From assembly GCA_030710605.1 (NCBI GenBank), contig CP092863.1:143250623-143314622 (forward strand): a stretch of DNA of 64,000 nt. Reading direction: 5' to 3'. The notes beneath the pieces were generated by a model that saw only the letters and a program-made list of their open reading frames with translations, had not been told where the DNA came from and did no database searches. Within the stretch, counting starts at the first letter, position 1, and each line of letters begins with the position of its first letter. This DNA comes from Cordylochernes scorpioides (taxonomy: Eukaryota > Arthropoda > Arachnida > Pseudoscorpiones > Chernetidae). A program made the position numbers and the translations under genes. This document shows positions 1 to 64,000 of this stretch, one piece after another.

Positions 1-320
1 AAATAGACGTCTAAAACCAGACGTCATCTATTGACTGTCGACTCAATTAGCGGCCTCAGGTCGGGGACAAAGCCACAATACCAACTTTGGCAAACTGAAA
101 AGCGTCCACCTAGAGACCATGGTTTCGGGCTAATGGCCCTCGTCGTTTTTCAGTTTGCCAAAGCTGGTGTTGTGGCTTTGTCACCGACCCTAAGGCCGCT
201 AGTTGCGGCGACGGTCAATAGATGGCGTCTGGTTTTAGACGTCTATTTTGACGGGAGAGGCGACCCTTGTCTCTTTAGATCAATTTCCTCCCGGCAAATT
301 TCCATCTATAAAAATATTAT
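1..320. mobile_element. Family A hammerhead repeat, inverted dimer
   Basis: Two arms of one repeat face each other around position 147: the left arm (about 50-146) is the reverse complement of about 147-235. The same unit recurs at 17800-18120 and 59820-60350. The minus strand of the left arm carries a truncated hammerhead at 103-145: stem II, GAAAC, the short stem III and the 3' stem-I strand are present, but the 5' stem-I strand and the first core bases are lost exactly at the inversion point. No protein is encoded. The reading frames here are chance frames in the repeat. A Penelope-like or retrozyme origin is inferred from the ribozyme only. Confidence 0.6.
103..145 (-). ncRNA. Truncated hammerhead ribozyme (family A)
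   Basis: Read on the minus strand this has ACGAGG in place of CTGACGAG, then GGGC-CATTA-GCCC as stem II, GAAAC, an ACC/GGT mini stem III, GGTC as cleavage site and TCTAGGTGGAC as the 3' stem-I strand. The first two core bases and the whole 5' stem-I strand are missing, so it should not cleave. Confidence 0.6.
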
Positions 321-549
321 ATATATATGTGTAGTATATTTTAAACTGTATAATAATGACACTTTTAGTATATGTCACATATCTTCCAATTAGTTAGAGC
401 CGATACTTTATAAAATCATACCCTTCTATTAAAATGTACACTGCTCCTATTTGCTACCACCCCATATTTTGTAAATATGCTATATCTTTATTAATATAAC
501 CTGTACACCCTTATTTGTACTTAAACTTAAAATTGTGACGTCAACATAA

Positions 550-985
550 AAAGCCAAAGAGTGGTCAGCTGCGGGCAGAGTGGAGGAAATAGCCGACGCT
601 CAGATGGAGCCCCCTCCAGGGCTTTTCATAGACGACCCCTGTCAACAGGACAGTTTTTGCAGAGGGTCAGCGGCAGTATGTTCTACAGGGTGTCCATCGG
701 CAGACCGCTTCTGTATCTCTCGGTCTCTCTCTCTCTCCATGTCTCGGTGATAAGCATCCAAGTTTGTGTCATGGCCTCTACCTCTGTCCCGTGGACTGTC
801 CCCGACCACTCTCGGTGCTAACATCTAGCCCTGCCTCTGCTTCTTGTTGTCCTCGTGTGGGAAGAACATCAACACTCGCCTCACGTACACGACTGCCAGT
901 TTATCCATACGTCGACAGAATCACATTTGCAACAATATTACACACATATAAATATATTAAAAATAAAGAAGGCATCTCCTGACCA
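550..985 (+). pseudogene. Cysteine-rich coding fragment, frameshifted (possible exon)
   Basis: A GC-rich island in AT-rich surroundings. One frame is open from 550 to a stop at 748-750 and has cysteines spaced C-x5-C-x6-C-x3-C-x6-C (about 637-712). Just after a (TC)n run at about 719-737 that frame stops, and the next frame (open to about 982) continues with C-x8-C-x5-C-x3-C. This looks like one cysteine-rich extracellular domain broken by slippage in the TC run. No family was recognised. No convincing splice sites or initiator were seen. It could be a host exon or a retroposed piece. An alternative frame (561-821) is open throughout but lacks the cysteine spacing. Confidence 0.3.
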
Positions 986-999
986 CGAGAACATGTGCT

Positions 1000-1600
1000 T
1001 TTTTTCTATTGTCTTATCATATATATATATTGTTGCACCAAGTTGCAGCTTTGCAGAGTCGTCGACCTTGGTTTCTTCCTTCTTGGTGTTATACACGTTT
1101 CCCGAGCGGGTTTCCATATTCAGAGCAAATAAATAAAAGTAATTAAATAAAAGTAAATAAAAATAAATTACCTTTCAACGTTATTGTGTTTATTTATTTG
1201 TGGTCTTCCTCGTAGGTCGTGATCCGCAGTCTTCCTCTCCGTCCTCTCTCGCTCCAATAACCAATCAAGTAATATGTACAATAAATATTACAAAAGGAAT
1301 GAAACTATAAAAAGGAATGATGATAATCTAAATATTCTGTTTTAAATAAATATTATATATCGTAGAATATTTTGAATAAATGTAAGGCGCATTAAAATTG
1401 ATGTAACAATATATATATTTTTTATTTATCAAACAAAACACACGTATATCCTATGCGGATATGTACGTGTAAATTTCCGAATAATTTTATGTACATAATT
1501 TCAAAATATATATATACAAAAATTATTTTTTTGGTTTAGAGAGAGAGAGTGAAAAATTATTTAAATTTATAATATATTTTTTTCTAATGAAAAAAAAAAA
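1000..1600. other. AT-rich spacer, no gene seen
   Basis: Short A/T runs, TA repeats and weak pieces of dispersed repeats. The start, about 964-1000, matches the outer end of family C. No supported coding frame. Confidence 0.5.
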
Positions 1601-1890
1601 ATTCAAAGGCCCCTGATTATTACAAAAGTCCAACGCAACCAATGAGTGCAAGTAACCAAACAGGGCTCTGGCACACTTGTAAGTGCAAAGGTCAAACTAC
1701 GCGCTTTACACATGTGTAGACATGTGGTGTACCTACAGTTAAAGTAGTCGCCAACTACTACCCACTAAATGTTTGTATAATAGTGGTTGTACGTATTCCA
1801 AGTACAGGCCATGATAATCATGGTAGGTAGTAAGTGACCACTTTTACTGTAAGTGCACCACATGTCTACATATGTAGGGAGACACCTGGA
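1600..1890 (+). mobile_element. SINE body fragment, partly inverted
   Basis: Positions 1605-1770 match the body of the tRNA-derived SINE seen complete at 31322-31620: the segment around AGTGCAAGTAACCAAAC, then GGGCTCTGGCA, then the ACATGTGTAGACATGTGG palindrome. Positions 1800-1885 hold part of the same body in inverse orientation, so this is a head-to-head pair with no tRNA-like head left. Confidence 0.6.
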
Positions 1891-2159
1891 TTTTAATAAT
1901 ATTAATTTCTGAAAGTTCTATTTAAAGATATACTTAGGTTAATTCATTTTTTGATGTTTATAATGTATATATATTCACCAAAAAGGCACCTCTCCCTTCA
2001 AACCGAGCGTAATAGTGGTGAATGAGTTACAACACCAACATTTTAAAGGGAGAAGTGACTCTTTTGGTGCATAATTACCATCTTCCCGCAAATTCATTTT
2101 ACACTCATCGACAAAACTTGAGGAAGTGGGAAGTTTTTTATTTCATCGGTCGTCCTTTT

Positions 2160-2391
2160 TTTTTTTTGAGTAGACAGAGGCAAATTTTGTTCATACTTGG
2201 GTATCTCGTATGTCTTCAATAAAGGTCACTGTAATATCTTTCAGAGTTATTGTCTGTATCCCGATATACATTGTAAAAGGTACAACTTCCTTAAGTTATG
2301 TCTATGAGTGTATACACACTTGGTTTTCTCGTGTCTTCAATAAAGATCACTGTAATATCTTCCAGAGTTATTGTCTGAATCCTGATATACA
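2160..2391 (+). repeat. 123-bp MITE satellite, left part (split by a LINE)
   Basis: About two units of the 123-bp family (TTGGTTATCTCG ... TCCATGAGTGTATA). It continues at 3303-3367, on the far side of the LINE insertion at 2392-3302. Its 5' part carries the T-run and the AGACAGAGGCAAATTTTG segment that marks the left end of the parent MITE. Confidence 0.75.
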
Positions 2392-3302
2392 ACAACAACA
2401 ACAACAAAAGCCTTTATTAAGGGCCACTCGCCCTATACAGGATTCGCCAGTTCACAAGGGATAGGGAGAACACTGTGAGGCCTTTTTCCGGGATATAGTC
2501 TTGTGGAATCCAAATATCGCCATCGCTATATACCTATTCTTTGATATTTCATTGATCAGTGCCGGAAATGAAGGACAAAGTTGCCCCGTTTTATCATTTA
2601 GTTTTCGTCTTTCCTCAGACAGAGCAGCACAGTCAAATATGTAATGCAACATCTCCGTTGTTATTCCTGATCCACAGAAAGTGCATTTCAGGTCTTCACG
2701 CCTCAATAAAATCAAGTGGTGTTCTCTGAAAAAAATTGAAAGGGTTCTAAATTGTGCAATTAATCTGGTGATAGGAAAAGGGAGTTCAGTTAAGAAGTAT
2801 TCTTCGGTGGTAAACGTTGTATATATGCCTCTATAGTGGGAATATAACTTTGATTGGGTTATTCTTGTTAGGTCGTTTTGTATTGTTTGCTCTATCGCAG
2901 TTCTTAATATTCCAGGGATAGCATTCCTTAGTGAATCAGGATCATTACAATAAGTAAGCCACGAGGATCCGTTATTATTAAGTAAATTGCTTAATTGTTT
3001 TATAAAACCGATGGGCGCACCTGTAGCACAGGATACTTGCCTCATTCTAATTAAACATATTCGAGGCCGTCTATTTGTATCCATACTCAGCACCCTCAGC
3101 CAATATTTCAAGGTCAATTTCAGAGCTGTTATTATTAATGAGACGCGGCCTGTTTCTGGTCTTATTATGTATCCTGGTGTATATCTAAGCAAATTCAAAA
3201 ACCTAGGAATAAATTTATCTTGTATATGGTCTAATAAATCTTTATACTCTGTTGCCCAAATTGGAGCAGCATACATCAAAACAGCCATCACAATTGAGTC
3301 AA
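2392..3302 (-). mobile_element. 5'-truncated non-LTR retrotransposon (LINE) with TSD
   Basis: The minus strand encodes about 280 residues (stop near 2452) of a LINE ORF2 C-terminus: the post-RT region starting with a VLMYAAPIWA-like segment, then a CxxC...H....C zinc knuckle (C-T-F-C, then HYIFDC) near residue 215-230. After the stop comes a short 3' UTR with AATAAAG and a (TTG)n tail at 2388-2406. A 15-bp target-site duplication, GAATCCTGATATACA, flanks it at 2377-2391 and 3303-3317. The target is a unit of the 123-bp satellite, so this insertion is younger than that satellite. A related fragment lies at 17090-17440. Confidence 0.85.
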
Positions 3303-3367
3303 GAATCCTGATATACATGTTAAAAGTTACAACTTCCTTAAGTTTTGTCTATGAGTGTATATATTAA
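3303..3367 (+). repeat. 123-bp satellite, right part after the LINE
   Basis: Begins with the second copy of the 15-bp target duplication and completes the unit interrupted at 2391. Confidence 0.75.
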
Positions 3368-8421: not shown

Positions 8422-8722
8422 AATGCATTTCCTGATCGTTCTGATGGCTTGCGCCATCTATCGGAATAAATATCAACTAATCGTTGATTTTTTAATTATT
8501 CCAGAATTGGCCAAATACCGTTTCTCGATTAATCAAGGAAAACTAACCACGTACGCGTTTCGGGCTGTTGGCCCTCGACAGCGTGGTGCAAGCTGTACCT
8601 CAACGACCAAAAAGGATGGTCTTTGGGGCATCCTGAAAAACAAGGCCGGAAGGGTCTATTTATTCCGATAGATGGCGCAAGCCATCAGCAAGTTTCAGTT
8701 GCACGATCAGTAAATGCCTTTT
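8422..8722. mobile_element. Family B hammerhead repeat, inverted dimer
   Basis: The left part reads GCTTGCGCCATCTATCGG on the plus strand and passes through the ribozyme. The right end (8664-8722) is the same terminus in reverse (GATAGATGGCGCAAGCCATC). Other copies: 10985-11065, 14168-14415, 42236-42440, 61590-61775, 62010-62250 and 62415-62520. Confidence 0.65.
8546..8587 (-). ncRNA. Hammerhead ribozyme copy, mutated core (family B)
   Basis: Minus strand: ACCACG stem I, CTGTCGA where CTGANGA is required, stem II GGGCCAACAGCCC, GAAAC, ACG/CGT stem III, GTA cleavage site, CGTGGT stem I. The invariant A of the first core box is replaced by U, so it is probably inactive. Confidence 0.6.
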
Positions 8723-9768: not shown

Positions 9769-10531
9769 CGAGGGGCATCCAATAAATAAGTTTCCCTATT
9801 TTTTAACAAATAAACAACTTTATTTACAATTATGCAGTTATTTTATTTTCATTATACAACTCATAGAATACTTCTCTACATAATCACCATTTCTGTCCAA
9901 ACATTTTTGGTACCGTTGTAGCGATACTTTGATACCACTGTTGTACCAAGCCGTGTCCTGTCTTCGTAGCCAGTGGTTCGCCTCCGCCTGTTTTCAATTC
10001 AAATTCAAAACATCTGACATGATTGTTCCAATCGAAGAGCATCCAATTTCGATTCCAGGAGGCAGTCGAATCATTATTTCGTCAATGGTGACGCGGCGAT
10101 TTGCTTCCACCACATTCCGAACAGCAGCCACGGCTGCATTGTCCGTAGCAGTAACGGGCCTGTCGCTTCGCTCGTCATCATGCACGTTTTGCCGTCCTTC
10201 CAAGAACCATGAACGCCATCGGCGAACCATTTGGATGCTCATACATCCTTCACCATACACTGACACTAAATTGCGATGAATATTGACCGCAGTTTCATTT
10301 TTCGCTGTGAAAAAACGAATTACAGAACGGAGTTCGCAAGTGGACACGTTCACCAGTGGTAACTCCATGGAAACTGAAGCGCTACGGACTTGTGCGTACG
10401 AGTAGAGTGATTTTGAAAGGTCACCAGCTTCCAACGCATCCTAGTGACCATTTCTTACCTACTAACTAATTTTTACAACGTTTCGTTCGCCGAAAAAAAA
10501 ATAGGGAAACTTATTTATTGGATGCCCCTCG
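9769..10531 (-). mobile_element. Internally deleted mariner element with intact TIRs
   Basis: Terminal inverted repeats of about 35 bp (CGAGGGGCATCCAATAAATA inward from both ends), TA target duplications at 9767-9768 and 10532-10533, total 763 bp. The minus strand keeps the N-terminal helix-turn-helix half of a mariner transposase (10434-9994). After a stop it keeps a C-terminal piece (about 9865-9985) with the family's YxxGIxxLxxRYxKCLxxNGDYVEK pattern. The catalytic DDD domain is deleted. Intact termini mean an autonomous relative could still move it. Confidence 0.9.
9994..10434 (-). pseudogene. Mariner transposase N-terminal remnant
   Basis: 146 codons. Residues about 30-75 match the first HTH of the mariner DNA-binding domain (VIRFFTAKNETAVNIHRNL-like, then a YGE...S.QMVRRWRSWF helix). 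About 85-100 is the linker with DERSDRP, and about 105-140 is the second HTH (RVTIDEIMIRLPPGIEIG). It ends where the catalytic core should begin. A full family member is usually near 340-350 residues, so about 60% is gone. Binding to the TIRs may survive but transposition cannot. Confidence 0.85.
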
Positions 10532-14167: not shown

Positions 14168-14600
14168 TTAGGAAAAAGGCATCTCCTTATCGTGCAACTG
14201 AAAGTTGCTGATGGCTGGCGCCATCTATCGTAATAAATATCAACTATTCTCGTTGATTTTTAATTATTCCAGAATTGACCAAATACCCATTCTTGATTAA
14301 TCAAGAAAAGCTAACCACGGACGCGTTTCGGGCTGTTGGCCCTCATCAACGTGGTGCAAGCTGTACCTCAACGACCAAAAAAATTGGTCATTAAGGCATC
14401 CTGAAAAATCATGAAACGGGTAGTTAAGGCCAGAATTGCGTGAGAACGCTACACAATGCGAAAAAATAGTACAAATGAGATATTGTACTGGGATAAGGTG
14501 CATAAATTAGGTAATAAATCCTGTTGAAGGACTGACAAGTCCGAAAGCTTGAAAATAAAAATTGCACAAGAAACTTAACCCTGGAAGCTTCATTTATTTT
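14168..14600. mobile_element. Family B hammerhead repeat plus D-type tail
   Basis: Positions 14168-14415 are a family B copy (CATCTCCTTATCGTGCAACT ... GGCGCCATCTATCG ...). Positions 14519-14590 carry another terminal type (GTTGAAGGAC...GTCCGAAAGCTTG), repeated at 43275-43365, a diverged relative of the hammerhead at 47211-47250. Confidence 0.6.
14314..14355 (-). ncRNA. Hammerhead ribozyme copy, one core change (family B)
   Basis: Minus strand: ACCACG / CGTGGT stem I pairs perfectly, stem II is GGGCC-AACA-GCCC, GAAAC is intact, stem III is ACG/CGT and the cleavage triplet is GTC. The first core box is TTGATGA instead of CTGATGA, which breaks the conserved C3-G8 pair, so cleavage is doubtful. 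Confidence 0.65.
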
Positions 14601-17639: not shown

Positions 17640-17800
17640 TTGCCTCTATTTACAAAATAAAATTCAACAATTCAATTTCAAAAGACCAAAGGTAGACGTC
17701 TTTCTTTATTTAAAAGTCCGCAAGCTTTCGGACAATGACCTTCTTCAACAGACTATTATGCAAATATAATAAACTAGAGAAGATATGATATATAAATATA
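17640..17800 (-). mobile_element. D-type terminal repeat fragment
   Basis: Minus strand CTGTTGAAGAAGG ... TGTCCGAAAGCTTGCGG resembles the hammerhead at 47211-47250 with a changed first core box. Probably a decayed Penelope-like terminal repeat. Confidence 0.4.
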
Positions 17801-18120
17801 GGCACAAGGCGCCTCTCACGTCAAAATAAACGTCAAAAACTGACGCTATCTATTGACTGTCGCCGCAAACTAGCGGCCTCGGGTCGGTGACAAAGCCACA
17901 ACACCAGCTTTGGCAAACTGAGAAGCGTCCACCTAGAGACCATGGTTTCGGGCTAATGGCCCTCGTCAGCCTAGGGCGGACTTTATTCCTGGAGATCCAT
18001 ACGGGATCCAATGGAATCTTCACAATCTACCAAAGGGGCATTTTGACGTTTATTTTGACGGGAGAGGCGCTCTGTGCTTCTATGGATCAATTTCTTCCCG
18101 GCAAATTTTCCATCTATATA
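17800..18120 (-). mobile_element. Family A hammerhead repeat
   Basis: Bounded by copies of the GAGAGGCG...CTGTGCTTCTATGGATCAA and GTCAAAATAAACGTCAAAA ends in inverse orientation. It contains an intact ribozyme at 17927-17981. A solo LTR is inserted just after its right end (18126). Confidence 0.7.
17927..17981 (-). ncRNA. Hammerhead ribozyme, intact core (family A)
   Basis: Minus strand: 5' stem I GTCCGCCCTAGG, CTGACGA, stem II GGGC-CATTA-GCCC, GAAA, stem III ACC/GGT with a two-base loop, cleavage triplet GTC, 3' stem I TCTAGGTGGAC. All invariant core positions are present and stem I pairs over about 10 bp with one bulge and one G-U. The very short stem III is typical of retroelement-borne type I hammerheads, which often cleave best as dimers. 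Confidence 0.85.
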
Positions 18121-18646: not shown

Positions 18647-19106
18647 ATATATATGTCCGTAAGCTCTCAGCCTTTTAAATAAAGAAAACACTTCGCGTCT
18701 ACCGTTAAATTATTTCAGACATGCATTAATCGTATTAGAGCTCTCTCTCTCTCGCTAAAATCCATTACATTTATAATTTACTACAAAATGTTTAATGGTG
18801 GATGGGACACGATAAAATGACAATAGTTCTATTTGTTTCAACGGCCATTTGAAAGTAAATCTTGATTGTAAATCGGCTTAACTCTCCGTGAATAATTAAA
18901 ACACTCGCCAACAACAACTTGTATTCTTGAATAAATGTTATTTCTTTTCTTCAAATTACAATTTTATCATATATTTGTTCATTTTAGAATATAAATAAAA
19001 TGTCTTTTAGTCAAAATATATATTAAGAAAAAGAGTTGCGTCCTTTTATACTTTTTTAAAAATATAAACACAAGGTAATACGACCAAATCCAAACAAATA
19101 AATAAT

Positions 19107-19150
19107 GTGTGACGTTTCGGTGACAGCGTTGTTACCATCTTCAGACAAAA
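19107..19150 (-). ncRNA. Hammerhead ribozyme, Penelope type (family E, left)
   Basis: Minus strand: TTTTGT stem I, CTGAAGA, stem II GGTAACA/TGTCACC, GAAAC, two-base-pair stem III (AC/GT), cleavage after GTC, ACACA stem I. The core fits CUGANGA...GAAA. It is the left half of an inverted dimer with 19188-19231. Confidence 0.75.
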
Positions 19151-19187
19151 GTACTGAATGAGAAATTTTCCACAGCAATTCAGTACT

Positions 19188-19231
19188 TTTGTCTGAAGAT
19201 AGTAACAACGCTGTTACCGAAATGTCACACA
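19188..19231 (+). ncRNA. Hammerhead ribozyme, Penelope type (family E, right)
   Basis: CTGAAGA at 19193-19199, stem II with one mismatch, GAAA at 19219-19222, then TGTC. The base after GAAA is T where C is usual, weakening stem III. Confidence 0.65.
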
Positions 19232-19329
19232 CTATTTATTTATTTGGATTTGGTCTTATTACCTTGTGTTTATAATCTATAATCCAAATTGTGCTTCATC
19301 AATTCTTTTTAAATATATACTTTATTTGA

Positions 19330-28464: not shown

Positions 28465-28690
28465 AAAAACAAAGTAGGCATATCCTGACCAGGAGCACAT
28501 GTGCTTTACAGAAGGCAGAGCGCCATCTGGCGGAACAGAAATCAACTAAACATTGATTTAGCCTGTTCCCTGATATTTGGCCAATCCAATTTCTTGATAA
28601 ATCAAGAAAAGCCTTCCACGAACGCTTTTCGCGCTGTTGGCGCTCGTCAGCGTGGAGTAGGCTGTACCACTGCCTTTTTTCTATTGTTTT
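28465..28690 (-). mobile_element. Family C hammerhead repeat
   Basis: Starts AAAGTAGGCATATCCTGACC, passes GCGCCATCTGGCGGAACAGA and AATTTCTTGATAAATCAAG, then the ribozyme. Partial copies: 52285-52410, 52795-52925, 59560-59695 and 63685-63850. Confidence 0.65.
28615..28656 (-). ncRNA. Hammerhead ribozyme (family C)
   Basis: Minus strand: TCCACG / CGTGGA stem I, CTGACGA, stem II GCGCC-AACA-GCGC, GAAA, then AGCGTT with a GTT cleavage triplet. The core is complete. Stem III is weaker than in family B because C after GAAA is A. Stem II has compensating changes relative to family B (GGGCC/GCCC against GCGCC/GCGC), so pairing has been kept while the sequence changed. Confidence 0.75.
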
Positions 28691-42235: not shown

Positions 42236-42440
42236 ATGGATTGCGCCATCTATCGGAATAAATATCAATTATTTGCTGATTTTTAAATAATACAGAATTG
42301 CCAAATACCCATTCTTGATAAAACAAGAAAAGCTAACCACGTACGCGTTTCGGGTTGTTGGCCCTCGTCAGCGTAGTGCAGGCTGTACGTCTACGACCAA
42401 AATATTGGTCACAGAGGCTTCCTGAGAAATCAAGTAATGG
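42236..42440 (-). mobile_element. Family B hammerhead repeat
   Basis: Starts TGATGGATTGCGCCATCTAT and continues through the ribozyme to the GCTGTACGTCTACGACC part. The outer end (CTTATCGTGCAACTG) is replaced by a (TA)n tract. Confidence 0.65.
42336..42377 (-). ncRNA. Hammerhead ribozyme, intact core (family B)
   Basis: Minus strand: ACTACG / CGTGGT stem I (one G-U), CTGACGA, stem II GGG-CCAACA-ACCC, GAAAC, ACG/CGT stem III, GTA cleavage triplet. All conserved core positions are present. Confidence 0.8.
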
Positions 42441-42666
42441 TTATATTTAAGGCCAAAACTTACATATATACGCTGAACATGTAAAAAAAAAAATTAAAAT
42501 TGAAAAAAAGTCGAGTGTTGATATTAAAAACAAAAAAAGACATATCATGTCCACTCAAATAAGCTTTTTAGATGACAGAGCCCCATTAAGAGATATCATT
42601 CAACCAGCACGTATCATCCACCATGCACGTATATTTTCAAAATTTTGTTTTTCAGACTGAAATAAT

Positions 42667-42986
42667 AATATATACAGTTATCAGCGTCATAATCAATTCT
42701 TTCTTAATCAATTCTGTCACCGTTTGCTTTTGTGAATGGAATAAATACCCAAATATGGCCATTTCTCATAACCATCGGTGGTTCAGTGGTAAAATGCTCG
42801 CCTGCCACGCGGGCGGCCCGGATTCGATTCCCGGCCGATGCATTTTTTTTTTACAATTTTAAAAACTCATTTATATATTATACAAGAATGACATCCACGG
42901 CGCCAATTTATAATTGTAACGAATAGTATTTGAATAAAAGCATTTAATCGGGTAAAACCCGGGCGTTGCCCGGGTCATTCGGCTAG
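42667..42986 (+). mobile_element. Non-autonomous Helitron carrying tRNA-Gly
   Basis: Starts near TATATACAGTTATCAGCGTC and ends with hairpin GGGCGTTGCCCGGG and CTAG at 42983-42986, then T. The interior carries a tRNA-Gly copy (42772-42842) with a following T-run. The last about 90 bp match the Helitrons ending at 11931 and 21444. Confidence 0.75.
42772..42842 (+). tRNA. tRNA-Gly(GCC) pseudogene in a Helitron
   Basis: 71 nt with anticodon arm CGCCTGCCACGCGGGCG (anticodon GCC), A-box GGTTCAGTGG and B-box GATTCGATTCC. Differences from the near-universal eukaryotic sequence: position 1 is C (breaks the 1-72 pair), GTAAAA for GTAGAA in the D-loop, and an A in the T-stem/loop border. Followed by T9. 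Probably not functional. Confidence 0.75.
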
Positions 42987-46959: not shown

Positions 46960-47285
46960 AAATAAACTATCACGTCACTTCCATAGCATATTCTCCAAAT
47001 ACAATAGACTCATTCTAGAATCTTTAATCTCCAAAGACAATAATAGCATAAACAGAAGATCTACCCCAACAGTTCCAGCATATTCAACGCAGATGATGCC
47101 AACCCCCATTGAAACAGTACCCTCTACAACTGCCACTATTTTATTTTTGAATTTTTTAAATGTATTTCTCTGAATCTCTATTGTATCTGTTGCACGCCTT
47201 TGTGGAGCCAGTGGCCTGATGAAGCGCGACCGCGCGAAAGCTTGCCTCCCAGATACCTTAATAAAGAAACTCTGCAAATATTTTA
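46960..47285 (+). mobile_element. Penelope-like 3' region with hammerhead (family D)
   Basis: A plus frame at about 46990-47155 (ISKDNNSINRRSTPTVPAYS ...) is open to a stop at about 47156 but has no recognised domain. It is followed by the ribozyme at 47211-47250 and ACCTTAATAAAGAAACTCTG. The arrangement, a coding tail then hammerhead, would suit a Penelope-like element end. That is inference. Confidence 0.4.
47211..47250 (+). ncRNA. Hammerhead ribozyme, intact core (family D)
   Basis: GGC stem I, CTGATGA (47216-47222), stem II GCGC-GACC-GCGC with an extra G-C possible, GAAA (47236-47239), AGCT stem III, CTT cleavage triplet, GCC stem I. The core is perfect but stem I is short (3-4 bp). Confidence 0.75.
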
Positions 47286-49134: not shown

Positions 49135-49275
49135 TTTTCAAAATTCGGAACTATTTTAAAGGCGTAAGATTCTTTTTTGAAATTAAACAATTTCTACTGC
49201 CCTTACTGCAATGGAAAAATTAAAGGGAGGGCCTGGCTCATCAGTAGTGAACCCTCCCAGCCGTTTCGCCAGTTT
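49135..49275 (-). mobile_element. Family H copy
   Basis: AGGCGTAAGATTC ... CTACTGCCCTTACTGCAATG ... AGTAGTGAACCCTCCCAGCC. Joined to the mariner fragment that follows. Confidence 0.65.
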
Positions 49276-49279
49276 AAAA

Positions 49280-49700
49280 CGTTTTTCACAATTTTATCAT
49301 AAACATGAATATTATCCTCTTGTAACTTTATGTTGTATTCTCGCTTAAAATCAGCCATCGCCACTTCACCAGTTATAAACAGCTGTTTGGTAATTTCTAC
49401 CGATTTCATAACTCCTCTCTCGTAGGATGTTATCAAATCGAAGCCGCCCCTGTACTGATGAGGGCCATAGCCTGGATTCATAGTATACACATTGGTTACT
49501 GTCTTGGCTTTCTTGGGGGGAAGGGAACCGGAGTGTCTCCATTGCATTGATTGTTGCTTGGACTCTGGTGTAAAGTGATGGGCCCAAGTCTCATCCATGG
49601 TAACAAATCTATTAACAAATTCCTCTGGATTGGCTTCAAATAACGCAATATTTTCCGAACTTTCTCCTTATGGTGTTGTGGCTCATTGTTTATCCCCACT
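49280..49700 (-). pseudogene. Mariner transposase fragment joined to unknown coding sequence
   Basis: Minus strand: NIALFEANPEEFVNRFVTMD leads into DETWAHHFTPESKQQSMQW and PKKAKTV, the mariner block holding the first catalytic Asp. The frame then runs on for about 75 codons (49480-49280: YGPHQYRGGFDLITSYERGV ... FKREYNIKLQEDNIHVYDKI) with no mariner resemblance and no stop until the family H repeat. The second and third catalytic residues are absent. Confidence 0.7.
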
Positions 49701-49828: not shown

Positions 49829-51200
49829 ACAATGGTAAGAGGATATCTCTCCCTAAAGAACACTTTGGCTCTGTAACTAGGTGTTGTCCTTTACAAAGAG
49901 GTGGTTCTACTGTAGCTGCTCTCTGGTAAGAGGACACCTCTCCCTAAAGGACACTCTGGCTCTGTAACTAGGTGTTTTCCTTTACAGAGAGGTAGTTTTA
50001 CTGTAGAAACTCTCTAGTAAGAGGACACCTCTCCTTAAAGGACACTTTGGTTCTGTAACTAGGTGTTGTCCTGTACAGAGAGGTAGTTTTACTGTAGAAA
50101 CTCTCTAGTAAGAGGACACCTCTCCTTAAAGGACACTTTGGTTCTGTAACTAGGTGTTGTCCTGTACAGAGAGGTAGTTTTACTGTAGAAACTCTCTAGT
50201 AAGAGGACACTTCTCCTTAAAGGACACTTTGGTTCTGTAACTAGGTGTTGTCCTTTACAGAGAGGTAGTTTTACTGTAGAAACTCTCTAGTAAGAGGACA
50301 CCTCTCCTTAAAGGACACTTTGGTTCTGTAACTAGGTGTTGTCCTGTACAGAGAGGTAGTTTTACTGTAGAAACTCTCTAGTAAGAGGACACCTCTCCTT
50401 AAAGGACACTTTGGTTCTGTAACTAGGTGTTGTCCTTTACAGAGAGGTAGTTTTACTGTAGAAACTCTCTAGTAAGAGGACACTTCTCCTTAAAGGACAC
50501 TTTGGTTCTGTAACTAGGTGTTGTCCTTTACAGAGAGGTAGTTTTACTGTAGAAACTCTCTAGTAAGAGGACACCTCTCCTTAAAGGACACTTTGGTTCT
50601 GTAACTAGGTGTTTTCCTTTACAGAGAGGTAGTTCTACTGTAGCAACTCTCTGGTAAGAGGACACCTCTCCTTAAAGGACACTTTGGCTTTACAATTAGG
50701 TGTTGTCCTTTACAGAGAGGTAGTTCTACTGTAGCAACTCTCTGGTAAGAGGACACCTGTCCCTAAAGAACACTTTGGATCTGTAATTAGGTGCTGTCCT
50801 TTAAAGAAAGGTAGTTCTACTGTAGCTGCTCTCTGGTAAGAGGTCACCTCTCCCTAAAGGACACTTTGACTCTGTAACTAGGTGCTGTCCTTTAAAGAAA
50901 GGTAGTTCTACTGTAGCTGCCCTCTGGTAAGAGGACACCTCTCCCTAAAGGACACTTTGGGTCTGTAATTAGGTGTTGTCCTTTACAAAGAGGTAGTTCT
51001 ACTGTAGCAACTCTCTGGTAAGAGGACACCTCTCTCTAAAGGACACTTTGGCTCTGTAACTAGGTGTTGTCCTTTACAGAGAGGTAGTTCTACTGTAGCT
51101 ACTCTCTGATAAGAGGACACCTGTCCCTAAAGAACACTTTGGATCTGTAATTAGGTGTTGTCCTTTACAGAGAGGTAGTTCTACTGTAGCAACTCTCTGT
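49829..51200 (+). repeat. 91-bp satellite, about 15 units
   Basis: Unit: GTAAGAGGACACCTCTCCTT, AAAGGACACTTTGGTTCTGT, AACTAGGTGTTGTCCTTTAC, AGAGAGGTAGTTTTACTGTA, GAAACTCTCTA. Spacing is 91 bp. ACCTCTC..AAAGGACA and TGTCCTTTACAGAGAGGT are complementary, so each unit can fold into a hairpin. Central units (50016-50640) are the most alike. Edge units are diverged, as expected from unequal crossing over. Confidence 0.9.
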
Positions 51201-53199: not shown

Positions 53200-54286
53200 C
53201 ATATACTAATAGAAGACTTTAGGAAGTTTTATATTTTAATGTCGATTGTCGTCTGTTTTTTTTTTTTTTTTTTTTTTTTTAAGCAGACAGAGGCAATTTT
53301 GTTCACACTTGGTTATCTTGTCTTCAATAAAGGTCACTGTAATATCTTTCAGAGTTATTGTCTGAATCCCGATATACATGCCAAAAGGTACAACTTCCTT
53401 AAGTTTTGTCCATGAGTGTATACACACTTGGTTACCTCGTATGTCTTCAATAAAGGTTACTGTAATATATTTCATAGTTATTGTCTGAATCTCGATATAC
53501 ATGCTAAAAGGTACAACTTCCTTAAGTTTTGTCCATGAGTGTATACACACTTGGTTATCTCGTATGTCTTCAATAAAGGTCACTGTGATATAAATCAGAG
53601 TTATTATCTGAATACCTATATACATGCCAAAAGGTACAACTTCTTTAGGTTTTGTCCTTGAGTGTATACACCCTTGGTTATCTCGTATGTCTTTAATAAA
53701 GGTCACTGTAATATAATTCAGAGTTATTGTCTGAATCCCGATATACATGCTAAACGGTACAACTTCCTTAAGTTTTGTCCATGAGTGTATACACGCTTGG
53801 TTATCTCGTATGTCTTCAATAAAGGTCACTTTAATATAATTCGGAGTTATTGTCTCAATCCCGATATACATGCCAAAAGGTACAACTTCCTTAAGTTTTG
53901 TCTATGAGTTTATACACACTTGGTTATCTTGTGTGTCTTCAATAAAGGTCACTGTAATATAATTCAGAGTTATTGTCTCAATCCCGATATACATGCTAAA
54001 AGGTACAACTTCTTTAAGTTTTGTCCATGAGTGTATACACACTTGGATATCTCGTATGTCTTCAATAAAGGTCACTGTAATATAATTCAGAGTTATTGTC
54101 TGAATCCCGATATACATGCCAAAAGGTACAACTTCCTTAAGTTTTGTCCATGAGTGTATACACACTTGGATATCTCGTATGTCTTCAATAAAGGTCACTG
54201 TAATATAATTCAGAGTTATTGTCTGAATCCCGATATACATGCCAAAAGGTACAACTTCCTTAAGTTTTGTCCATGAGTGTATTATA
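53200..54286 (+). repeat. 123-bp satellite array, about 8-9 units, open in one frame
   Basis: The left MITE end (53205-53300, with a T-run) is followed by eight to nine 123-bp units to TCCATGAGTGTATT. Because 123 is divisible by three and the unit has no stop in one minus frame, frames of 211 and 130 codons result, with the 41-residue period containing HSWTKLKEVVPFSMYIGI and VTFIEDIRDNQVCI. No initiator or domain, so treated as satellite. Confidence 0.9.
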
Positions 54287-54599: not shown

Positions 54600-56697
54600 T
54601 CAAAAATGTAAATAAGGAATGACCTTTTTCAGATATACAATGAGAGAAAATGGGTTAGAAAAGATGTTGATGTTAAGAAAATTGAAGGAAGAGAGGAAAA
54701 CACCTGCAATGAGCTGGCTAGTAGGTGTTAAGAAAGCTACCAGAAGGCCACTAGATGTGAGTGATGGTCACTAAGAGATCAAATTGGAGAATATTTGTCC
54801 ATATAGTCACCAAGGAAGAGAGGAAGACCTGCAATGAACTGGCTAGAAGGGGACAAGAAAACTACCAGAAGGTCACTAGATGTGAGTGATGGTCACTAAG
54901 AGATCGAATTGGAGAATATTTGTCCATATAGTCACCAAGGAAGAGAGGAAGACCTGCAATGTGCTAGCTAGAAGGGGTCAAGAAAGTTACCAGAAGGTCA
55001 CTAGATGTGAGTGATGGTCACTAACAGATCAAATTTGAGAATATTTGTCCATATAGTCACCAAGGAAGAGAGGAAGACCTGCAATGAGCTGGCTAGAAGG
55101 GGACAAGAAAACTACCAGAAGGTCACTAGATGTGAATGATGGTCACTAACAGATCAAATTGGAGAATATTTGTCCATATAGTCACCAAGGAAGAGAGGAA
55201 GACCTGCAATGAGCTGGCTAGAAGGGGACAAGAAAACTACCAGAAGGTCACTAGATGTGAGTGATGGTCACTAAGAGATCGAATTGGAGAATATTTGTCC
55301 ATATAGTCACCAAGGAAGAGAGGAAGACCTGCAATGAGCTGGCTAGAAGGGGACAAGAAAACTACCAGAAGGTCACTAGATGTGAGTGATGGTCACTAAG
55401 AGATCGAATTGGAGAATATTTGTCCATATAGTCACCAAGGAAGAGAGGAAGACCTGCAATGAGCTGGCTAGAAGGGGACAAGAAAACTACCAGAAGGTCA
55501 CTAGATGTGAGTGATGGTCACTAACAGATCAAATTGGAGAATATTTGTCCATATAGTCACCAAGGATGAGAGGAAGACCTGCAATGAGCTGGCTAGAAGG
55601 GGACAAGAAAACTACCAGAAGGTCACTAGATGTGAGTGATGGTCACTAAGAGATCGAATTGGAGAATATTTGTCCATGTAGTCATCAAGGAAGAGAAGAA
55701 GACCTGCAATGAACTGGCTAGAAGAGGTCAAGAAAGCTACCAGAAGGTCACTAGATATGAGTGATGGTCACTAACAGATCAAATTGAAGAATATTTGTCC
55801 ATATTGTCACCAAGGAAGAGAGGAAGACCTGCAATGAGCTGACTAGAAGGGGTTAATAAAGCTACCAGAAGGTCACTAGATGTGAGTGATGGTCACTAAC
55901 AGATCAAATTGGAGAATATTTGTCCATATAGTCACCAAGGAAGAGAGGAAGACCTGCAATGAGCTGGCTAGAAGGGGACAAGAAAGCTACCAGAAGGTCA
56001 CTAGATGTGAGTGATGGTCACTAAGAGATCGAATTGGAGAATATTTGTCCATGTAGTCATCAAGGAAGAGAAGAAGACCTGCAATGAACTGGCTAGAAGA
56101 GGTCAAGAAAGCTACCAGAAGGTCACTAGATATGAGTGATGGTCACTAACAGATCAAATTGAAGAATATTTGTCCATATTGTCACCAAGGAAGAGAGGAA
56201 GACCTGCAATGAGCTGACTAGAAGGGGTTAATAAAGCTACCAGAAGGTCACTAGATGTGAGTGATGGTCACTAACAGATCAAATTGGAGAATATTTGTCC
56301 ATATAGTCACCAAGGAAGAGAGGAAGACCTGCAATGAGCTGGCTAGAAGGGGACAAGAAAGCTACCAGAAGGTCACTAGATGTGAGTGATGGTCACTAAG
56401 AGATCGAATTGGAGAATATTTGTCCATGTAGTCATCAAGGAAGAGAAGAAGACCTGCAATGAACTGGCTAGAAGAGGTCAAGAAAGCTACCAGAAGGTCA
56501 CTAGATATGAGTGATGGTCACTAACAGATCAAATTGAAGAATATTTGTCCATATTGTCACCAAGGAAGAGAGGAAGACCTGCAATGAGCTGACTAGAAGG
56601 GGTTAATAAAGCTACCAGAAGGTCACTAGATGAGCTGTGAGTTATGGTCACTAACAGATCAAATTGGAGAATATTTGTCCATATAGTCACCAAAAGT
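54600..56697 (+). repeat. 125-bp satellite with three-unit higher-order repeat
   Basis: Unit 125 bp: AGGAAGAGAGGAAGACCTGC, AATGAGCTGGCTAGAAGGGG, ACCAGAAGGTCACTAGATGT, GAGTGATGGTCACTAA, GAATATTTGTCCATATAGTC. About 17 units. From about 55640 the variant unit with TGTCCATGTAGTCATCAAGG recurs at 55671, 56046 and 56421, exactly 375 bp apart, showing a three-unit higher-order repeat. Confidence 0.9.
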
Positions 56698-56731: not shown

Positions 56732-57581
56732 TATATTTCTATCCTTATATATATAAAAATGAAATGCGAAATCGATGTTTGTTATCGCATCACGCAAAAA
56801 TCTACTGACTCAATCATTATGGAATTTCGCATGTAGGTAGCTGAAGATTTCGTTTAACATATAGGCTATTCAAAAAACTAAAAAAGTTAATGTGCTTTTT
56901 TTTTAAATAAAAAACCAAAAAGCGTTAGTTCCAGTCTTTTACCGCTAGGGAGCAGCACTGGTCGCGACGATAAATGAATTTGATTTTTTTAAAGCATCGG
57001 TGGTTCAGTGGTAGAATGCTCGCCTGCCACGCGGGCGGCCAGGGTTCGATTCCCGGCCGATGCATTTTTTTTTAAACAATTTTTAAAACTCATTTATATT
57101 ATATCTCCTATATAAATGGAAATTTCATAAGTGGTGTTCGCTAAAAACTTTCGTTACAATGCATCAATTTCGACCAAATTTTCAACATTTATGTAAAACG
57201 AGATGGAGCAGGTTTTGCTTAACATCAAATTATTTTTCCTAACTTTAAAATACATAACTTTGCTGTTATCGATAAAATACAAAAAAATTCAACAGAGTTA
57301 ATTTTATTTATATATAAATACAAAAAAGAAATTCAGCAATTCATTCAACTCAATCTAAAAAAATATTCAAAACAAGCAATTTTAAGATAACACCATATGT
57401 AAAACAGTCGGCCAAGAAAACAACAACGATATTACATCTTTCTCACATATTCACACACAATCTTGATTAATAATTAAATCTAATCTTTAGCATTGTTTAT
57501 TATACTTCATAATATATAATATTCGTTAGGCAAACTTTCACTCGGATAAAACCCGGGCGAAGCCGGGTACACATCCGCTAG
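56732..57581 (+). mobile_element. Non-autonomous Helitron carrying tRNA-Gly
   Basis: Starts TCCTTATATATATAAAAATG and ends GGGCGAAGCCGGGTACACAT...CTAG (hairpin, then CTAG at 57578-57581), between A (56731) and T (57582). 850 bp without a Rep/helicase frame. Carries a tRNA-Gly copy at 56994-57064. The 3' end differs from the Helitrons at 21444 and 42986, so it is a second family. Confidence 0.8.
56994..57064 (+). tRNA. tRNA-Gly(GCC), Helitron-borne, nearly intact
   Basis: 71 nt. Acceptor GCATCGG/CCGATGC pairs fully, anticodon loop has GCC, A-box TGGTTCAGTGG and B-box GGTTCGATTCC are intact. The only visible fault is an A in the T-stem (CAGGG for CCGGG) giving one mismatch. A T-run (57065-57073) follows directly and could terminate Pol III. 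Could be transcribed. Whether it is charged is unknown. Confidence 0.75.
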
Positions 57582-59810: not shown

Positions 59811-59811
59811 T

Positions 59812-60345
59812 ATAGATGGAAAATTTGCCGGGAGGAAATTGATCCATTGAAGCACAGGGCGCCTCTTCCGTCAAAATAAACGTCAAAACCTGACGCCATC
59901 TATTGACCGTCGCCGCAACTAGCGGCCTCGGGTCAGGACAAAGTCCCAACATCAGCTTTGGCAAACTGAGAAGCGTCCACAGCGAGACCATGATTTGACG
60001 GAAGAGGCACCCTATGCTTCTATGGATCAATTTCCTCCCGGCAAATTTTCCATCTATATTCTAGCCATAGATTTGGCCCAGCCACCTTGCCAGCAAAACA
60101 CCTCTTTGGCAGATTGTCAAGATTCCATTAGATCCCGTGTGGATCTCATGGAATAAAGTCCGCCCTAGACTGACGAGGGCCATTAGCCCGAAACCATGGT
60201 CTCTAGGTGGACGCTTCTCAGTTTGCCAAAGCTGGTGTTGTGGCTTTGTCACCGACCCGAGGCCGCTAGTTTGCGGCGACGGTCAATAGATGGCGTCAGC
60301 TTTTGACGTTTATTTTGACGGGAGAGACGCCCTGTGCTTCTATGA
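59812..60345. mobile_element. Family A hammerhead repeat, inverted dimer in a MITE
   Basis: Left arm 59820-60000 (minus sense, ribozyme truncated at 59968-60000) and right arm 60055-60345 (plus sense, ribozyme intact). Both carry GGCAAATTTTCCATCTATA and CAATAGATGGCGTCA-type ends. Confidence 0.75.
60158..60212 (+). ncRNA. Hammerhead ribozyme, best copy (family A)
   Basis: Stem I 5' GTCCGCCCTAGA (to 60169), core CTGACGA (60170-60176), stem II GGGC-CATTA-GCCC, GAAA (60190-60193), stem III ACC/GGT closing on AT, cleavage triplet GTC ending at 60201, stem I 3' TCTAGGTGGAC. Every conserved position is present. Stem I pairs CCTAGA/TCTAGG, then GTCC/GGAC beyond a small internal loop, a typical site for tertiary contact with loop II. 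Confidence 0.9.
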
Positions 60346-60737
60346 ATATTGCCTCTGTATACTTCAAAAAATGACCGGCGTCATCAAATATTTTCCACTT
60401 CCCTAAGTTTTTATCCATGAGCCTATATATATAACAGGTATATATGTAATTTAAATGACTTGTGTTTGATTTTTAAACATTTATATTTCATCCATGTTTC
60501 TTAGGGTAGAGCCCTGTCTTTCTTTTCATATATTTTTCTTAATCACAAATAAAATTTGAAAAAAAAAGACAAAATTTCAATAAAAAATAAATCTTACATT
60601 GGATATTTGTTAATCTTTTTTCATAAAACAAAGCAATCAACCAATAAGATATTTTCCAAGTAAATAACTGAAGATAGAGGTTAACAAAGATATTTTTCGA
60701 AAGCCTATGCGAATTAACCCATTGAAGATCTAATTTC

Positions 60738-60788
60738 AACATGCTGATGAGGACCAACACCCCGAAACGTGTACCTGGTTACCTTTTC
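60738..60788 (+). ncRNA. Hammerhead-like copy, weak stems (family B)
   Basis: CTGATGA at 60744-60750 and CCCGAAACG are intact, but stem II (GGACC/CCCC) and stem I pair poorly. Probably inactive. The flanking AATTCCGATAGATGGCTCAA end confirms family B. Confidence 0.5.
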
Positions 60789-61135: not shown

Positions 61136-61585
61136 AGGTCATATATAAAAATACTACTTAAATCATATAACAATAAAAATAATATAAAGAATCTATTATC
61201 TTGCAGTCTAATAACCACAACGTTTTTTTCTCGTGGTCCATGGTCAAAAGTTTTTTTTTTCTATAATTCACAGAGTAAGAGAACTAATTGGAGTGAGGTG
61301 AGTAGAAAGCATTAATCTTTAGAGAAAGAATGATGGATTGTACTTAGTTTCTGACCTCTAAGATAATTTATAATTTTCCTTCACATTCTCACCTTATGTC
61401 TCCATTTTTCACTTTTTAAATAAATATTTAAAATCCTATATATATTCGCATATATAGAAAAAAACAGTTAAATTTCGGAATACAATTTTTTTTACTATAA
61501 ATATATTCAATATATTCTCAGATTTAAGAAATTTACGATTAACTTTTATAAAATATTCGAACACCTTATGTAATATTTTATGAAA
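61135..61585. other. AT-rich spacer, no gene seen
   Basis: No recognised feature. Confidence 0.45.
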
Positions 61586-61589
61586 TTAT

Positions 61590-61775
61590 GAAAAAGGTAT
61601 CTCCTTATCGTGCAACTGAAAGTTACTGATGGCTTGCGCCATCTATCGGAATAAATATCAACTATTCTCGTTGATTTTTAATTATTCCAGAATTGACCAA
61701 ATACCCATTCTTGATTAATCAAGAAAAGCTAACCACGGACGCGTTTCGGGCTGTTGGCTCTCATCAGCATTATGA
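61590..61775 (-). mobile_element. Family B copy, cut inside the ribozyme
   Basis: CATCTCCTTATCGTGCAACT start through GCGCCATCTATCGGAATAAA. The hammerhead (61732-61773) keeps CTGATGA, stem II, GAAAC and stem III, but its 5' stem-I strand is replaced by foreign sequence. Confidence 0.65.
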
Positions 61776-61799: not shown

Positions 61800-62000
61800 A
61801 AACACCGCAAGCTTTCGAGATATCGCGCTTCAACAAACAAAATTATAATTTAGCTCTTAGATTATATCTTGAAGATAGAGGCTGCCTGGCCGGCATTCAT
61901 AGTTCTTCAAATTAAAGATACTTGGGCCAGTAAATCTTTTTATTTATTATCTCGACGTTTTGACAAAAATCTTTTGTTCTCGTCAGGAGCGAATAAAAAT
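61800..62000 (-). mobile_element. Two Penelope-like terminal repeats, degenerate
   Basis: 61806-61840 (minus): GTTGAAGCGCG...TCTCGAAAGCTTGCGG, D-type. 61950-61992 (minus): CTCCTGACGAG...TTTTTGTCAAAACGTCGAG, where GAAAC has become CAAAAC. Confidence 0.5.
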
Positions 62001-62009: not shown

Positions 62010-62250
62010 TGGCAAAGGTCAAGATGCCTGAAGGACCAGTTTTTTGGTCGTTGAGGTACAGCTTGCACCACGCTGATGAGGGCCAACAGCCCGAAACGCG
62101 TACATGGTTAACTTTTCTTGATTAATCAAGAATGGGTAATTGGCCAATTCTGTAATAATTAGAAGTCAACGAGAATAGTTGATATTTATTCTGATAGATG
62201 GCGCAAGCCATCAGCAACTTTCAGTTGCTCAATAAGCAGATGCATTTTTA
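62010..62250 (+). mobile_element. Family B copy with hammerhead
   Basis: Starts AAGATGCCTGAAGGACCAG and ends GATGGCGCAAGCCATCAGCA with a GCAGATGCATTTTT tail. The most complete plus-strand copy. Confidence 0.7.
62067..62108 (+). ncRNA. Hammerhead ribozyme, intact core (family B)
   Basis: ACCACG stem I, CTGATGA (62073-62079), GGGCC-AACA-GCCC, GAAAC (62093-62097), ACG/CGT stem III, GTA cleavage triplet, CATGGT stem I with one C-A mismatch. The core is complete. Confidence 0.8.
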
Positions 62251-62640: not shown

Positions 62641-62767
62641 AATCCTTTTTCTTAATTTATACACCTTATCCCAGTACAATATCACTTTTGTACTGTTTTT
62701 TTCTTATTGCGTAAAGTTTTTAGATATCTTATTATGTATTAAACATAGCTAGATATTAATTTGATAT

Positions 62768-62830
62768 CGCCTACTTCTACCTACCATGATTATCATGGCC
62801 TGTAACACGTGTACTAGGGATAAGCAAAAA
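62768..62830 (+). repeat. SINE 3' end
   Basis: ACCATGATTATCATGGCCTG and CACGTGTACTAGGGATAAGC with an A tail. Confidence 0.55.
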
Positions 62831-63074
62831 AAAAAGATTTTAATTTGAAGAGATTCGTCTGATTATACTCAGAGAATAAATGAAATTTATTTTTCTTCTT
62901 TACTTATTAAAAGAAAAGGGAAAAAACAGCTTTTTTCAATATATCCAATTTTCATCCAATATTTTGGTGATAATTATTTTTGTGTCTAAATATAGAAATG
63001 TTGTATGTGAACTATTGATAAATCAATAAGTTAAAATGATTCATATGATGGGAATTTTTCAGATTTAATTTAAA

Positions 63075-63405
63075 CATACCTTATTTTATGACGCATTAGC
63101 GCGCCATCTGTTATGAAAATTCGAAACTATTATAGACACGTATGATTCTTTTTAAAAATAAACAATTTCTTCTGCCCTTACTTCAATGGAAAAATTAATA
63201 GGAGGGCCTGGCTCATCAGTGGTGAACCCTCCCAGCGGTTTCGACAGTTTAATCTATTATATAATAGATTAAACTGGCGAAAAATCTGGGAGGGTTCACC
63301 ACTGATGAGCCAGGCCCTCCTATTAATTTTTCCATTGAAGTAAGGGCAGAAGAAATTGTTTATTCTCAAAAAGAATCATACACGTCTATAATAGTTTCGA
63401 ATACC
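63075..63405. mobile_element. Family H fold-back, palindrome
   Basis: Arms of about 155 bp: AAAATTCGAAACTATTATAG ... CTGCCCTTACTTCAATGG ... GGTGAACCCTCCCAGCGG, meeting at TCTATTATATAATAGA (63252-63267), then the reverse. The right arm has GCGAAAAATCTGG for GCGAAACCGCTGG. Confidence 0.85.
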
Positions 63406-63409
63406 TTAT

Positions 63410-63680
63410 TTTTTCAAAAGGTTTTTTTTTTTCAATTAAATCAAAGTTACGTCTAGTTTATTAATCATAAAGAAAAATATATTAAACATATCTCTTATAT
63501 TGAATTACATATTTCATTTTAAAAAAATATGATCCAAAAAACATAATTTGTAAACAGAACAAATAATAATGCATATAGATAAACATCTAATCATTTCATT
63601 AGATCAAAAATAGCTAGATATGAAAAAACACTAGAAAAAAAAATAATAAAAAATAAAAAGATCAGGTGTTGATATAAAAA
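63410..63680. other. AT-rich spacer
   Basis: No recognised feature. Confidence 0.4.
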
Positions 63681-63684
63681 ATAA

Positions 63685-63850
63685 AAAAGGCATATCCTGA
63701 CCAGGAGCACATGTGCTTTTCAGAAGGCAGAACGCCATCTGGTGGAACAGAAATCAACTATTCTAAAATGTTTAGTTGAATTCTGTTCCACCAGATGGCG
63801 CTCTGCCTTCTGAAAAAAACATGTGCTCCTGGTCAGGATATGCCTTTTTT
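63685..63850. mobile_element. Family C outer ends as a head-to-head pair
   Basis: AAAAAGGCATATCCTGACCA ... CATCTGGTGGAACAGAA on the left and the reverse on the right, meeting at about 63767 (TTCTAAAATG). Ribozyme absent. Confidence 0.7.
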
Positions 63851-63944
63851 ATTTTTAATAGCTAGATATACAGAGTTAACAGCAATAGAATTATATTATA
63901 TATACGATTTTTAAAAATATGTAAAATAGATTTTAACACATATA

Positions 63945-64000
63945 CGAGGTGTGTTCAAAAAGTATCGCGACCTTTGAATTTTCGCGGGTTACATATCTTC
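63945..64000 (+). mobile_element. Terminal repeat of another mariner, cut by the window end
   Basis: After TA (63943-63944): CGAGGTGTGTTCAAAAAGTA, then TCGCGACCTTTGAATTTTCG. This start is characteristic of mariner-type termini and differs from the 9769-10531 element. The transposase, if any, lies beyond 64000. Confidence 0.65.

What the first reader, a model, noticed from the sequence alone, without database searches (positions are those of the whole stretch)
1..64000. Five distinct repeat families in one window each carry a hammerhead self-cleaving ribozyme
Families A (17927-17981, 60158-60212), B (42336-42377, 62067-62108), C (28615-28656), D (47211-47250) and E (19107-19150) all show CUGANGA, a stem II hairpin, GAAA, a two- or three-pair stem III, an NUH triplet and stem I. 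Outside the catalytic positions their sequences differ, and stem II changes are compensatory between B (GGGCC/GCCC) and C (GCGCC/GCGC). Hammerheads with tiny stem III are established in Penelope-like elements and retrozymes. The density and variety here, without any reverse transcriptase in view, suggest a large community of small non-autonomous ribozyme elements.
Basis: partly seen in the sequence, partly recalled or inferred. Interest (0 to 1): 0.85.

Follow-up and report, generated by a model that had tools for sequence, protein, structure and literature searches.

The report
Hammerhead elements carrying Penelope insertion marks
Short non-coding repeats that carry hammerhead ribozyme motifs occur in very high numbers in this genome, and the way they sit in the DNA matches how Penelope retrotransposons insert, which suggests whose enzyme spreads them.

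Summary
The hammerhead motifs are real but are not five independent families. A (17969-, 60170+) and B (42371-, 62073+) have canonical cores, above shuffle controls. C is a sister of B with a damaged stem III. In intact copies helix III is a palindrome; two A or two B RNAs fold unconstrained into a double hammerhead. Exact genome counts are 14,515 (A), 37,250 (B/C) and 42,082 (PLE/E), reversed controls 0, 0 and 7. A and B are short units (about 320 and 338 nt) whose copies carry PLE integration marks: head-to-head inverted copies, a tail on one end only (33 of 36 insertions) and target-site duplications. GIY-YIG elements of the same genome are also head-to-head, and two copies show the one-sided tail. 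Best reading: retrozyme-like elements moved in trans by PLE enzymes, a proposal already in print (PMC7229834), here with integration-level data. Ribozyme activity, circular RNA and the PLE reverse transcriptase domain are unproven here.

The parts
60158..60212 (+). A2 hammerhead motif, predicted cleavage after 60201; palindromic helix III ACCAUGGU
59811..60355 (+). A2 insertion: inverted partial copy 59811-59996, then forward copy 59994-60355 (head-to-head)
   Evidence: as L001
17927..17981 (-). A1 hammerhead motif, predicted cleavage after 17938
17790..18119 (-). A1 insertion with a shortened inverted partial copy (18041-18119)
1..318 (-). Third A insertion, head-to-head, cut by the window edge; its hammerhead (104-158) is broken on the 5' side
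62067..62108 (+). B2 hammerhead motif (helix III ACGCGU; predicted cleavage after 62102; one C-A mismatch in stem I)
61585..61773 (-). Inverted B copy facing B2, with its own hammerhead motif at 61732-61773
42336..42377 (-). B1 hammerhead motif, predicted cleavage after 42342, in B copy 42233-42458
14314..14355 (-). Additional B hammerhead with a mutated core (TTGATGA in place of CTGATGA)
8546..8587 (-). Additional B hammerhead with a mutated core (CTGTCGA)
60738..60779 (+). Additional diverged B hammerhead
28615..28656 (-). C hammerhead, sister of B; one stem III pair lost in this copy
47211..47250 (+). D, PLE-type hammerhead-like motif (helix III AGCU, CUU triplet, extra A after A9)
19107..19150 (-). 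E, PLE-type hammerhead-like motif (helix III ACGU, extra U after A9)
19187..19230 (+). Second E motif on the other arm of the palindrome 19063-19274
61870..61986 (-). PLE 3' end: PLE-type hammerhead 61954-61986 (degenerate, AAAA in place of GAAA) and PLE tail 61870-61901

Best explanation
Families A and B/C are short non-autonomous retrotransposons (retrozyme-like; units of about 320 and 338 nt) with a canonical-core hammerhead that probably works best as a dimer through its palindromic helix III. They are inserted by the enzymes of Penelope-like elements of the same genome. Proposed cycle: tandem transcripts cut themselves at the hammerheads into unit-length or circular RNA (inferred). A PLE reverse transcriptase with GIY-YIG nuclease cuts an AT-rich target and copies the RNA from both target ends, starting at two neighbouring internal sites, one per end (the enzyme is inferred; the footprints are shown). 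The two DNA strands meet at variable points, giving head-to-head insertions with a tail on one end and a target-site duplication (shown). D and E are solo ends, or non-autonomous copies, of PLE-type elements with the extra-nucleotide hammerhead.
For: Head-to-head: 31 '-+' against 2 '+-' neighbour pairs under 700 bp in the first 100 listed sites, all on C1, of each of three hammerhead patterns. One-sided tail: 33 of 36 head-to-head groups found in the 60 A and B loci have one short and one long end (32 of 35 without the duplicate L036), about equally left and right. D 4 of 4 and E 3 of 3, read by eye in loci picked because they were head-to-head. TSD of 8 bp or more: B 15 of 29 (cross-paired control 2.5%), A 12 of 27 (control 14.5%). 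GIY-YIG neighbours under 8 kb: 11 of 11 pairs head-to-head. In two of these (L098/L099, L100/L101) the tail string is on one end only. Published PLE signs match: inverted pLTR, 31-bp tail optionally on one inverted pLTR, 8-10 bp TSD (PMC3846280, passages); two adjacent internal start sites, both target strands extended, AT-rich cutting (PMC11167929, parts 1-2 of 4). Hammerhead: covariation in B/C, dimer folds of A and B.
Against: No ribozyme activity, transcript or circular RNA was tested. The reverse transcriptase half of the GIY-YIG elements was not confirmed: the frame upstream of the GIY-YIG domain in L087 shows a YIDD motif that I recognise by recall, but Pfam gives no reverse transcriptase match, and 12 of 30 GIY-YIG loci are of another group. 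No PLE with an A- or B-type hammerhead of its own was established; C-type hammerheads lie near GIY-YIG in L073 and L088 and were not resolved. Exceptions to the tail rule: L014 and a small second group in L024 have two short ends, L060 is classed as two long ends. End classes were set after seeing the ends. A targets are AT-rich, so their TSD control is high. In the covariation test two measures are ordinary (pairs with two-sided change 184 of 500 shuffles, pair types 196 of 500), and most of the 12 cells are the C clade, so few events. Rfam models do not support the motifs. Inner DNA ends are not seen to gather at the hammerhead cut (sample selected by match length).
Confidence: 0.74

Rival explanations
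1. A and B/C are only solo pLTRs or internal-deletion derivatives of autonomous PLE families that still have full members here; they have no circular-RNA cycle of their own.
For: Same integration marks as GIY-YIG elements; solo pLTRs are reported (PMC3846280, passages); C-type hammerheads near GIY-YIG in L073 and L088.
Against: Direct arrays of the short unit with spacings of 338 and 347-352 (B/C) and 319 (A); in 30 GIY-YIG loci the motifs 2054-2110 on the gene's strand are PLE-type in 8 and A/B-type in none (strands), but only about 1.5 kb on each side was read; canonical core against extra-nucleotide core.
Confidence: 0.3
2. Inverted-repeat DNA transposons (MITEs) that happen to hold hammerhead-like sequence.
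For: The outer ends are inverted repeats, and E looks like a palindrome.
Against: Inner junctions vary, many copies lack one arm, the two ends differ by a tail, and direct multimers occur.
Confidence: 0.04
3. Chance or decayed motifs without ribozyme function.
For: Rfam scores lie below gathering; several window copies have core or stem changes; monomer folds are weak, only A2 has z below -2.
Against: Shuffles, genome counts with reversed-pattern controls 0, 0 and 7, pairing kept in 93.1% of cells, and 19 of 37 A hammerheads in L001-L030 identical to A2, in a sample chosen by similarity.
Confidence: 0.08

Closest known systems
Metazoan non-LTR retrozymes (PMC7229834; abstract, Results parts 1-2 of 3 and Discussion read)
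   Same: Short (170-400 nt) non-coding units with a type I hammerhead, tandem copies, several families per genome (coral: more than 6000 motifs in 16 families), TSDs when present
   Different: Here head-to-head insertions with a one-sided tail; expression as circular RNA not tested
Penelope-like elements with minimal hammerheads (PMC11167929 parts 1-2 of 4 and passages; PMC3846280 passages; Cervera and de la Pena 2014 and Lunse et al. 2017 seen only as reference entries)
   Same: Inverted pLTR, optional tail on one end, short TSD, AT-rich targets, minimal hammerhead
   Different: A and B units are too short for a gene, have a canonical core, and a longer helix III palindrome (6-8 nt against 4)
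Newt and axolotl hammerhead repeats (PMC7229834 Results part 2; PMC6155905 passages)
   Same: Helix III of one pair with a palindromic tetraloop or two pairs with a tetraloop, better cleavage as dimers
   Different: Tandem repeats of 330-350 bp; head-to-head insertions were not mentioned in the parts read
Plant LTR retrozymes (PMC7761336 passages)
   Same: Non-autonomous hammerhead retroelements
   Different: Hammerhead inside ~350-bp LTRs, with PBS, PPT and 4-bp TSD

Membership tests
Hammerhead ribozyme (type I) | Core CUGANGA and GAAA with stems I and II and an NUH cleavage site | tested here: met
   A and B/C. For D and E the core has an extra nucleotide after A9, so they do not meet it strictly
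Hammerhead ribozyme (type I) | Rfam model at gathering score | tested here: not met
   best 23.5 bits against 52
Hammerhead ribozyme (type I) | Self-cleavage | not testable with these tools
   no assay
Metazoan non-LTR retrozyme | Non-coding unit of about 170-400 nt with a hammerhead, also as direct tandem repeats | tested here: met
   319 nt spacing in L004; 338 and 347-352 nt arrays
Metazoan non-LTR retrozyme | TSD longer than 4 bp and no LTR, PBS or PPT | tested here: inconclusive
   TSDs; PBS and PPT were not looked for
Metazoan non-LTR retrozyme | Expressed as circular RNA | not testable with these tools
   no RNA data
Penelope-like element (A and B/C) | Gene for reverse transcriptase and GIY-YIG endonuclease | tested here: not met
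   units of about 320-338 nt
Penelope-like element (A and B/C) | Head-to-head inverted copy, one-sided tail, TSD | tested here: met
Penelope-like element (GIY-YIG loci of this genome) | Reverse transcriptase domain beside GIY-YIG | tested here: inconclusive
   GIY-YIG matches in L084, L087 and L061; no reverse transcriptase match in the part of the frame read; YIDD motif by recall

The most novel reading that the evidence does not exclude
The palindromic helix III of the hammerhead is more than catalytic: it pairs two element RNAs (or two units of one RNA) into a double hammerhead that hands two templates to a PLE reverse transcriptase dimer, each copied from one of the two target ends at a different start site. 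This would explain in one step why insertions are head-to-head, why nearly all have exactly one tail, and why the ribozyme is kept in both PLEs and retrozymes.
Probability: 0.15. Interest if true: 0.85.

Novelty: new variant of a known kind. Interest (0 to 1): 0.6.

Why it matters
Which enzyme spreads animal retrozymes is left open in the papers read, with PLEs as the favoured candidate because the two co-occur and share type I hammerheads (PMC7229834 Discussion; PMC7761336 passages). The insertion footprints here are a direct, countable argument for that link and give start sites that can be tested with a purified PLE enzyme. The rule of one tail per two-ended insertion also constrains how PLEs integrate.

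Tried and rejected
Rejected: the MITE reading (variable junctions, multimers, one-sided tails). Rejected: five independent families. Monomer folds did not help: B1 z -0.18, E z +1.05, only A2 below -2, and none of the seven minimum-energy folds shows the helix III hairpin of the descriptor. Dimers of C, D, E and the PLE motif did not fold unconstrained into a double hammerhead; only A and B did. A/B sequence beside GIY-YIG genes: B matches in L064, L072, L073 and L088 were not resolved further, A gave none at E 0.05. Enrichment of inner ends at the hammerhead cut: not seen, in a sample selected for long matches; a loose cluster of A 5' ends at unit 67-71 is left uninterpreted. Exact A and B hammerhead patterns in viral contigs: 0 stretches each. 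The host was not identified; an arthropod hemocyanin search found nothing, and its controls cannot ring either. Reverse transcriptase domain in GIY-YIG loci: not confirmed (no solved-structure match).
Full report
What was claimed and what is there. A strict descriptor finds four sites, 60170+, 17969-, 42371- and 61767-; 200 dinucleotide shuffles give a mean of 0.035. A looser one finds eight, of which 60668+ fits no family here, against a mean of 0.16 and a maximum of 3 in 100 shuffles. No Rfam hammerhead family reaches its gathering score; HH9 appears at 23.5 and 19.0 bits with E 0.22 and 6.

How many families. B and C are 84% identical over 77 bp and align without gaps over 42 nt. In 30 distinct B/C copies chosen from those listed, 93.1% of cells pair, and every slid control is at 36% or less; 12 cells carry two-sided changes (shuffle mean 3.2, 0 of 500 as high). 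Two other measures are ordinary (184 and 196 of 500 shuffles as high), and most two-sided cells belong to the C clade, so they stand for few events. Further B copies lie at 8546-8587-, 14314-14355-, 60738-60779+ and 61732-61773-, and a broken A copy at 104-158-. Of 38 ACGUC strings copied from the 80 displayed, 34 pair better in stem II if one nucleotide after A9 is skipped (in 8 of them by a single pair); D and two D-like motifs do too; A, B and C do not.

Helix III. In intact copies the letters from A15.1 to U16.1 are palindromes: ACCAUGGU in A, ACGCGU in B and C, ACGU in E and the PLE type, AGCU in D. The window's own C copy is not. As a hairpin A can form two pairs and a tetraloop, B and C one pair and a tetraloop; these are the forms that the axolotl paper gives for hammerheads which cleave better as dimers (PMC7229834). 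ACGU and AGCU cannot close a hairpin. Unconstrained cofolding of two A or two B RNAs gives the double hammerhead (A -51.6 against 2 x -22.2 kcal/mol, B -35.3 against 2 x -13.5); C, D, E and the PLE motif gave other dimer folds. Dimer action of newt and viroid hammerheads is described in PMC6155905 (passages).

Copy number. The genome has 2.62 Gb in 24 contigs. Exact matches: 14,515 of the A core pattern (control 0), 37,250 of the B/C pattern (control 0), 42,082 of the ACGUC pattern (control 7); the control is the pattern read backwards. The D pattern did not complete. A D stretch has 2,006 and an E stretch 2,248 first-look candidates, 40 scored each.

Architecture. The three A loci of the window each have an inverted partial copy beside a forward copy. 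In 30 A loci and 30 B loci chosen by similarity to the window copies, grouping of matches gives 36 head-to-head groups. Outer ends fall into two classes: A near unit 350 or 386, B near 338 or 379-392. In 33 of 36 groups one end is short and the other long (15 of 17 in A, 18 of 19 in B; 32 of 35 without L036, a duplicate of L033). Exceptions: L014 and a small second group in L024 have two short ends; L060 is classed as two long ends, its left end not well placed. L031, the window's B2 locus, has a nested order and is not among the 36. Class limits were set after seeing the ends. An earlier hand-typed table gave 30 of 31. D (L092-L095) 4 of 4 and E (L091, L096, L097) 3 of 3 show the same by eye, as does the window's E, but these D and E loci were picked because they were head-to-head. 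Tails are about 36 nt in A, 40-50 in B, 30-50 in D, and about 27 in E.

Orientation in lists not ranked by similarity. In the first 100 listed sites of each of three patterns, all on C1, neighbours under 700 bp are head-to-head 13, 9 and 9 times and tail-to-tail 1, 0 and 1 times. B/C sites also form direct arrays with spacings of 338 and 347-352, for instance two minus then five plus units at C1:5646959-5649258. A has 319 nt spacing in L004.

Target sites. Direct repeats of 8 bp or more flank 15 of 29 B insertions (2.5% in cross-paired controls) and 12 of 27 A insertions (14.5%); four duplicates (L007, L021, L028, L036) were dropped. A often lies in AT repeats.

GIY-YIG elements. PF01541 gives 17,015 first-look candidates, 150 scored, 146 matches. 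The 11 neighbour pairs under 8 kb are all head-to-head. For two of them I read the outer ends: the tail string is present in L099 and L101 and absent from L098 and L100, with 11-12 bp repeats at the junctions by eye; both sit in tandem repeats, which weakens the TSD reading. Of 30 GIY-YIG loci, 8 have a PLE-type motif on the gene's strand at about 2054-2110 (strands). The loci are mixed: 12 align with each other as a group around L061, where the GIY-YIG domain lies near the start of the frame. In L087 a YIDD motif stands upstream of the GIY-YIG domain, recognised by recall; Pfam finds no reverse transcriptase there. So the name PLE rests on GIY-YIG, hammerhead type, inverted order and tail. 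The window's PLE end has its hammerhead at 61954-61986- and the tail at 61870-61901-.

Comparison with print. The tail on one of the inverted pLTRs and 8-10 bp TSDs are described for rotifer Penelope elements (PMC3846280, passages). Two adjacent internal start sites, extension from both target strands and AT-rich cutting are shown for the anole PLE (PMC11167929, parts 1-2 of 4). That PLEs may mobilise animal retrozymes is proposed in PMC7229834 and PMC7761336. In six searches I saw no listing that reports integration footprints for this; I saw listings and abstract starts only, and subscription papers and preprints are not held.

Conclusion. The integration marks are shown. Mobilisation in trans by PLE enzymes is the inference that fits them best. 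Self-cleavage, circular RNA and the working dimer are inferred from sequence.

Noticed in passing
window 2452-3348 (-): Open frame of 298 aa that looks like the end of a non-LTR reverse transcriptase gene by recall; Pfam gives no match.
   Followed up: partly
window 9994-10440 (-) and 49203-49667 (-): Mariner-type remnants: the first matches HTH_48 of Mos1 transposase; the second looks mariner-like by recall only, no Pfam match.
   Followed up: partly
window 54685-56693, 53304-54282, 49833-51199: Long tandem arrays of 125, 123 and 91 bp; the 123-bp unit recurs elsewhere in the window.
   Followed up: no
window 29843-29897 (-): Sub-threshold type-P1 twister ribozyme match, 39.5 bits, gathering score 67.2, E 3.9e-5.
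   Followed up: no
G000:C1:4128698-4129269: Three B/C-type hammerheads spaced 114 bp on one strand, then one on the other: a possible shorter unit.
   Followed up: no
L061 1402-2832 (+) and similar loci: A second GIY-YIG group with the nuclease domain near the start of a 476-aa frame, unlike the L078 group.
   Followed up: partly
window 42772-42842 and 56994-57064: Two closely similar tRNA-Gly genes.
   Followed up: no
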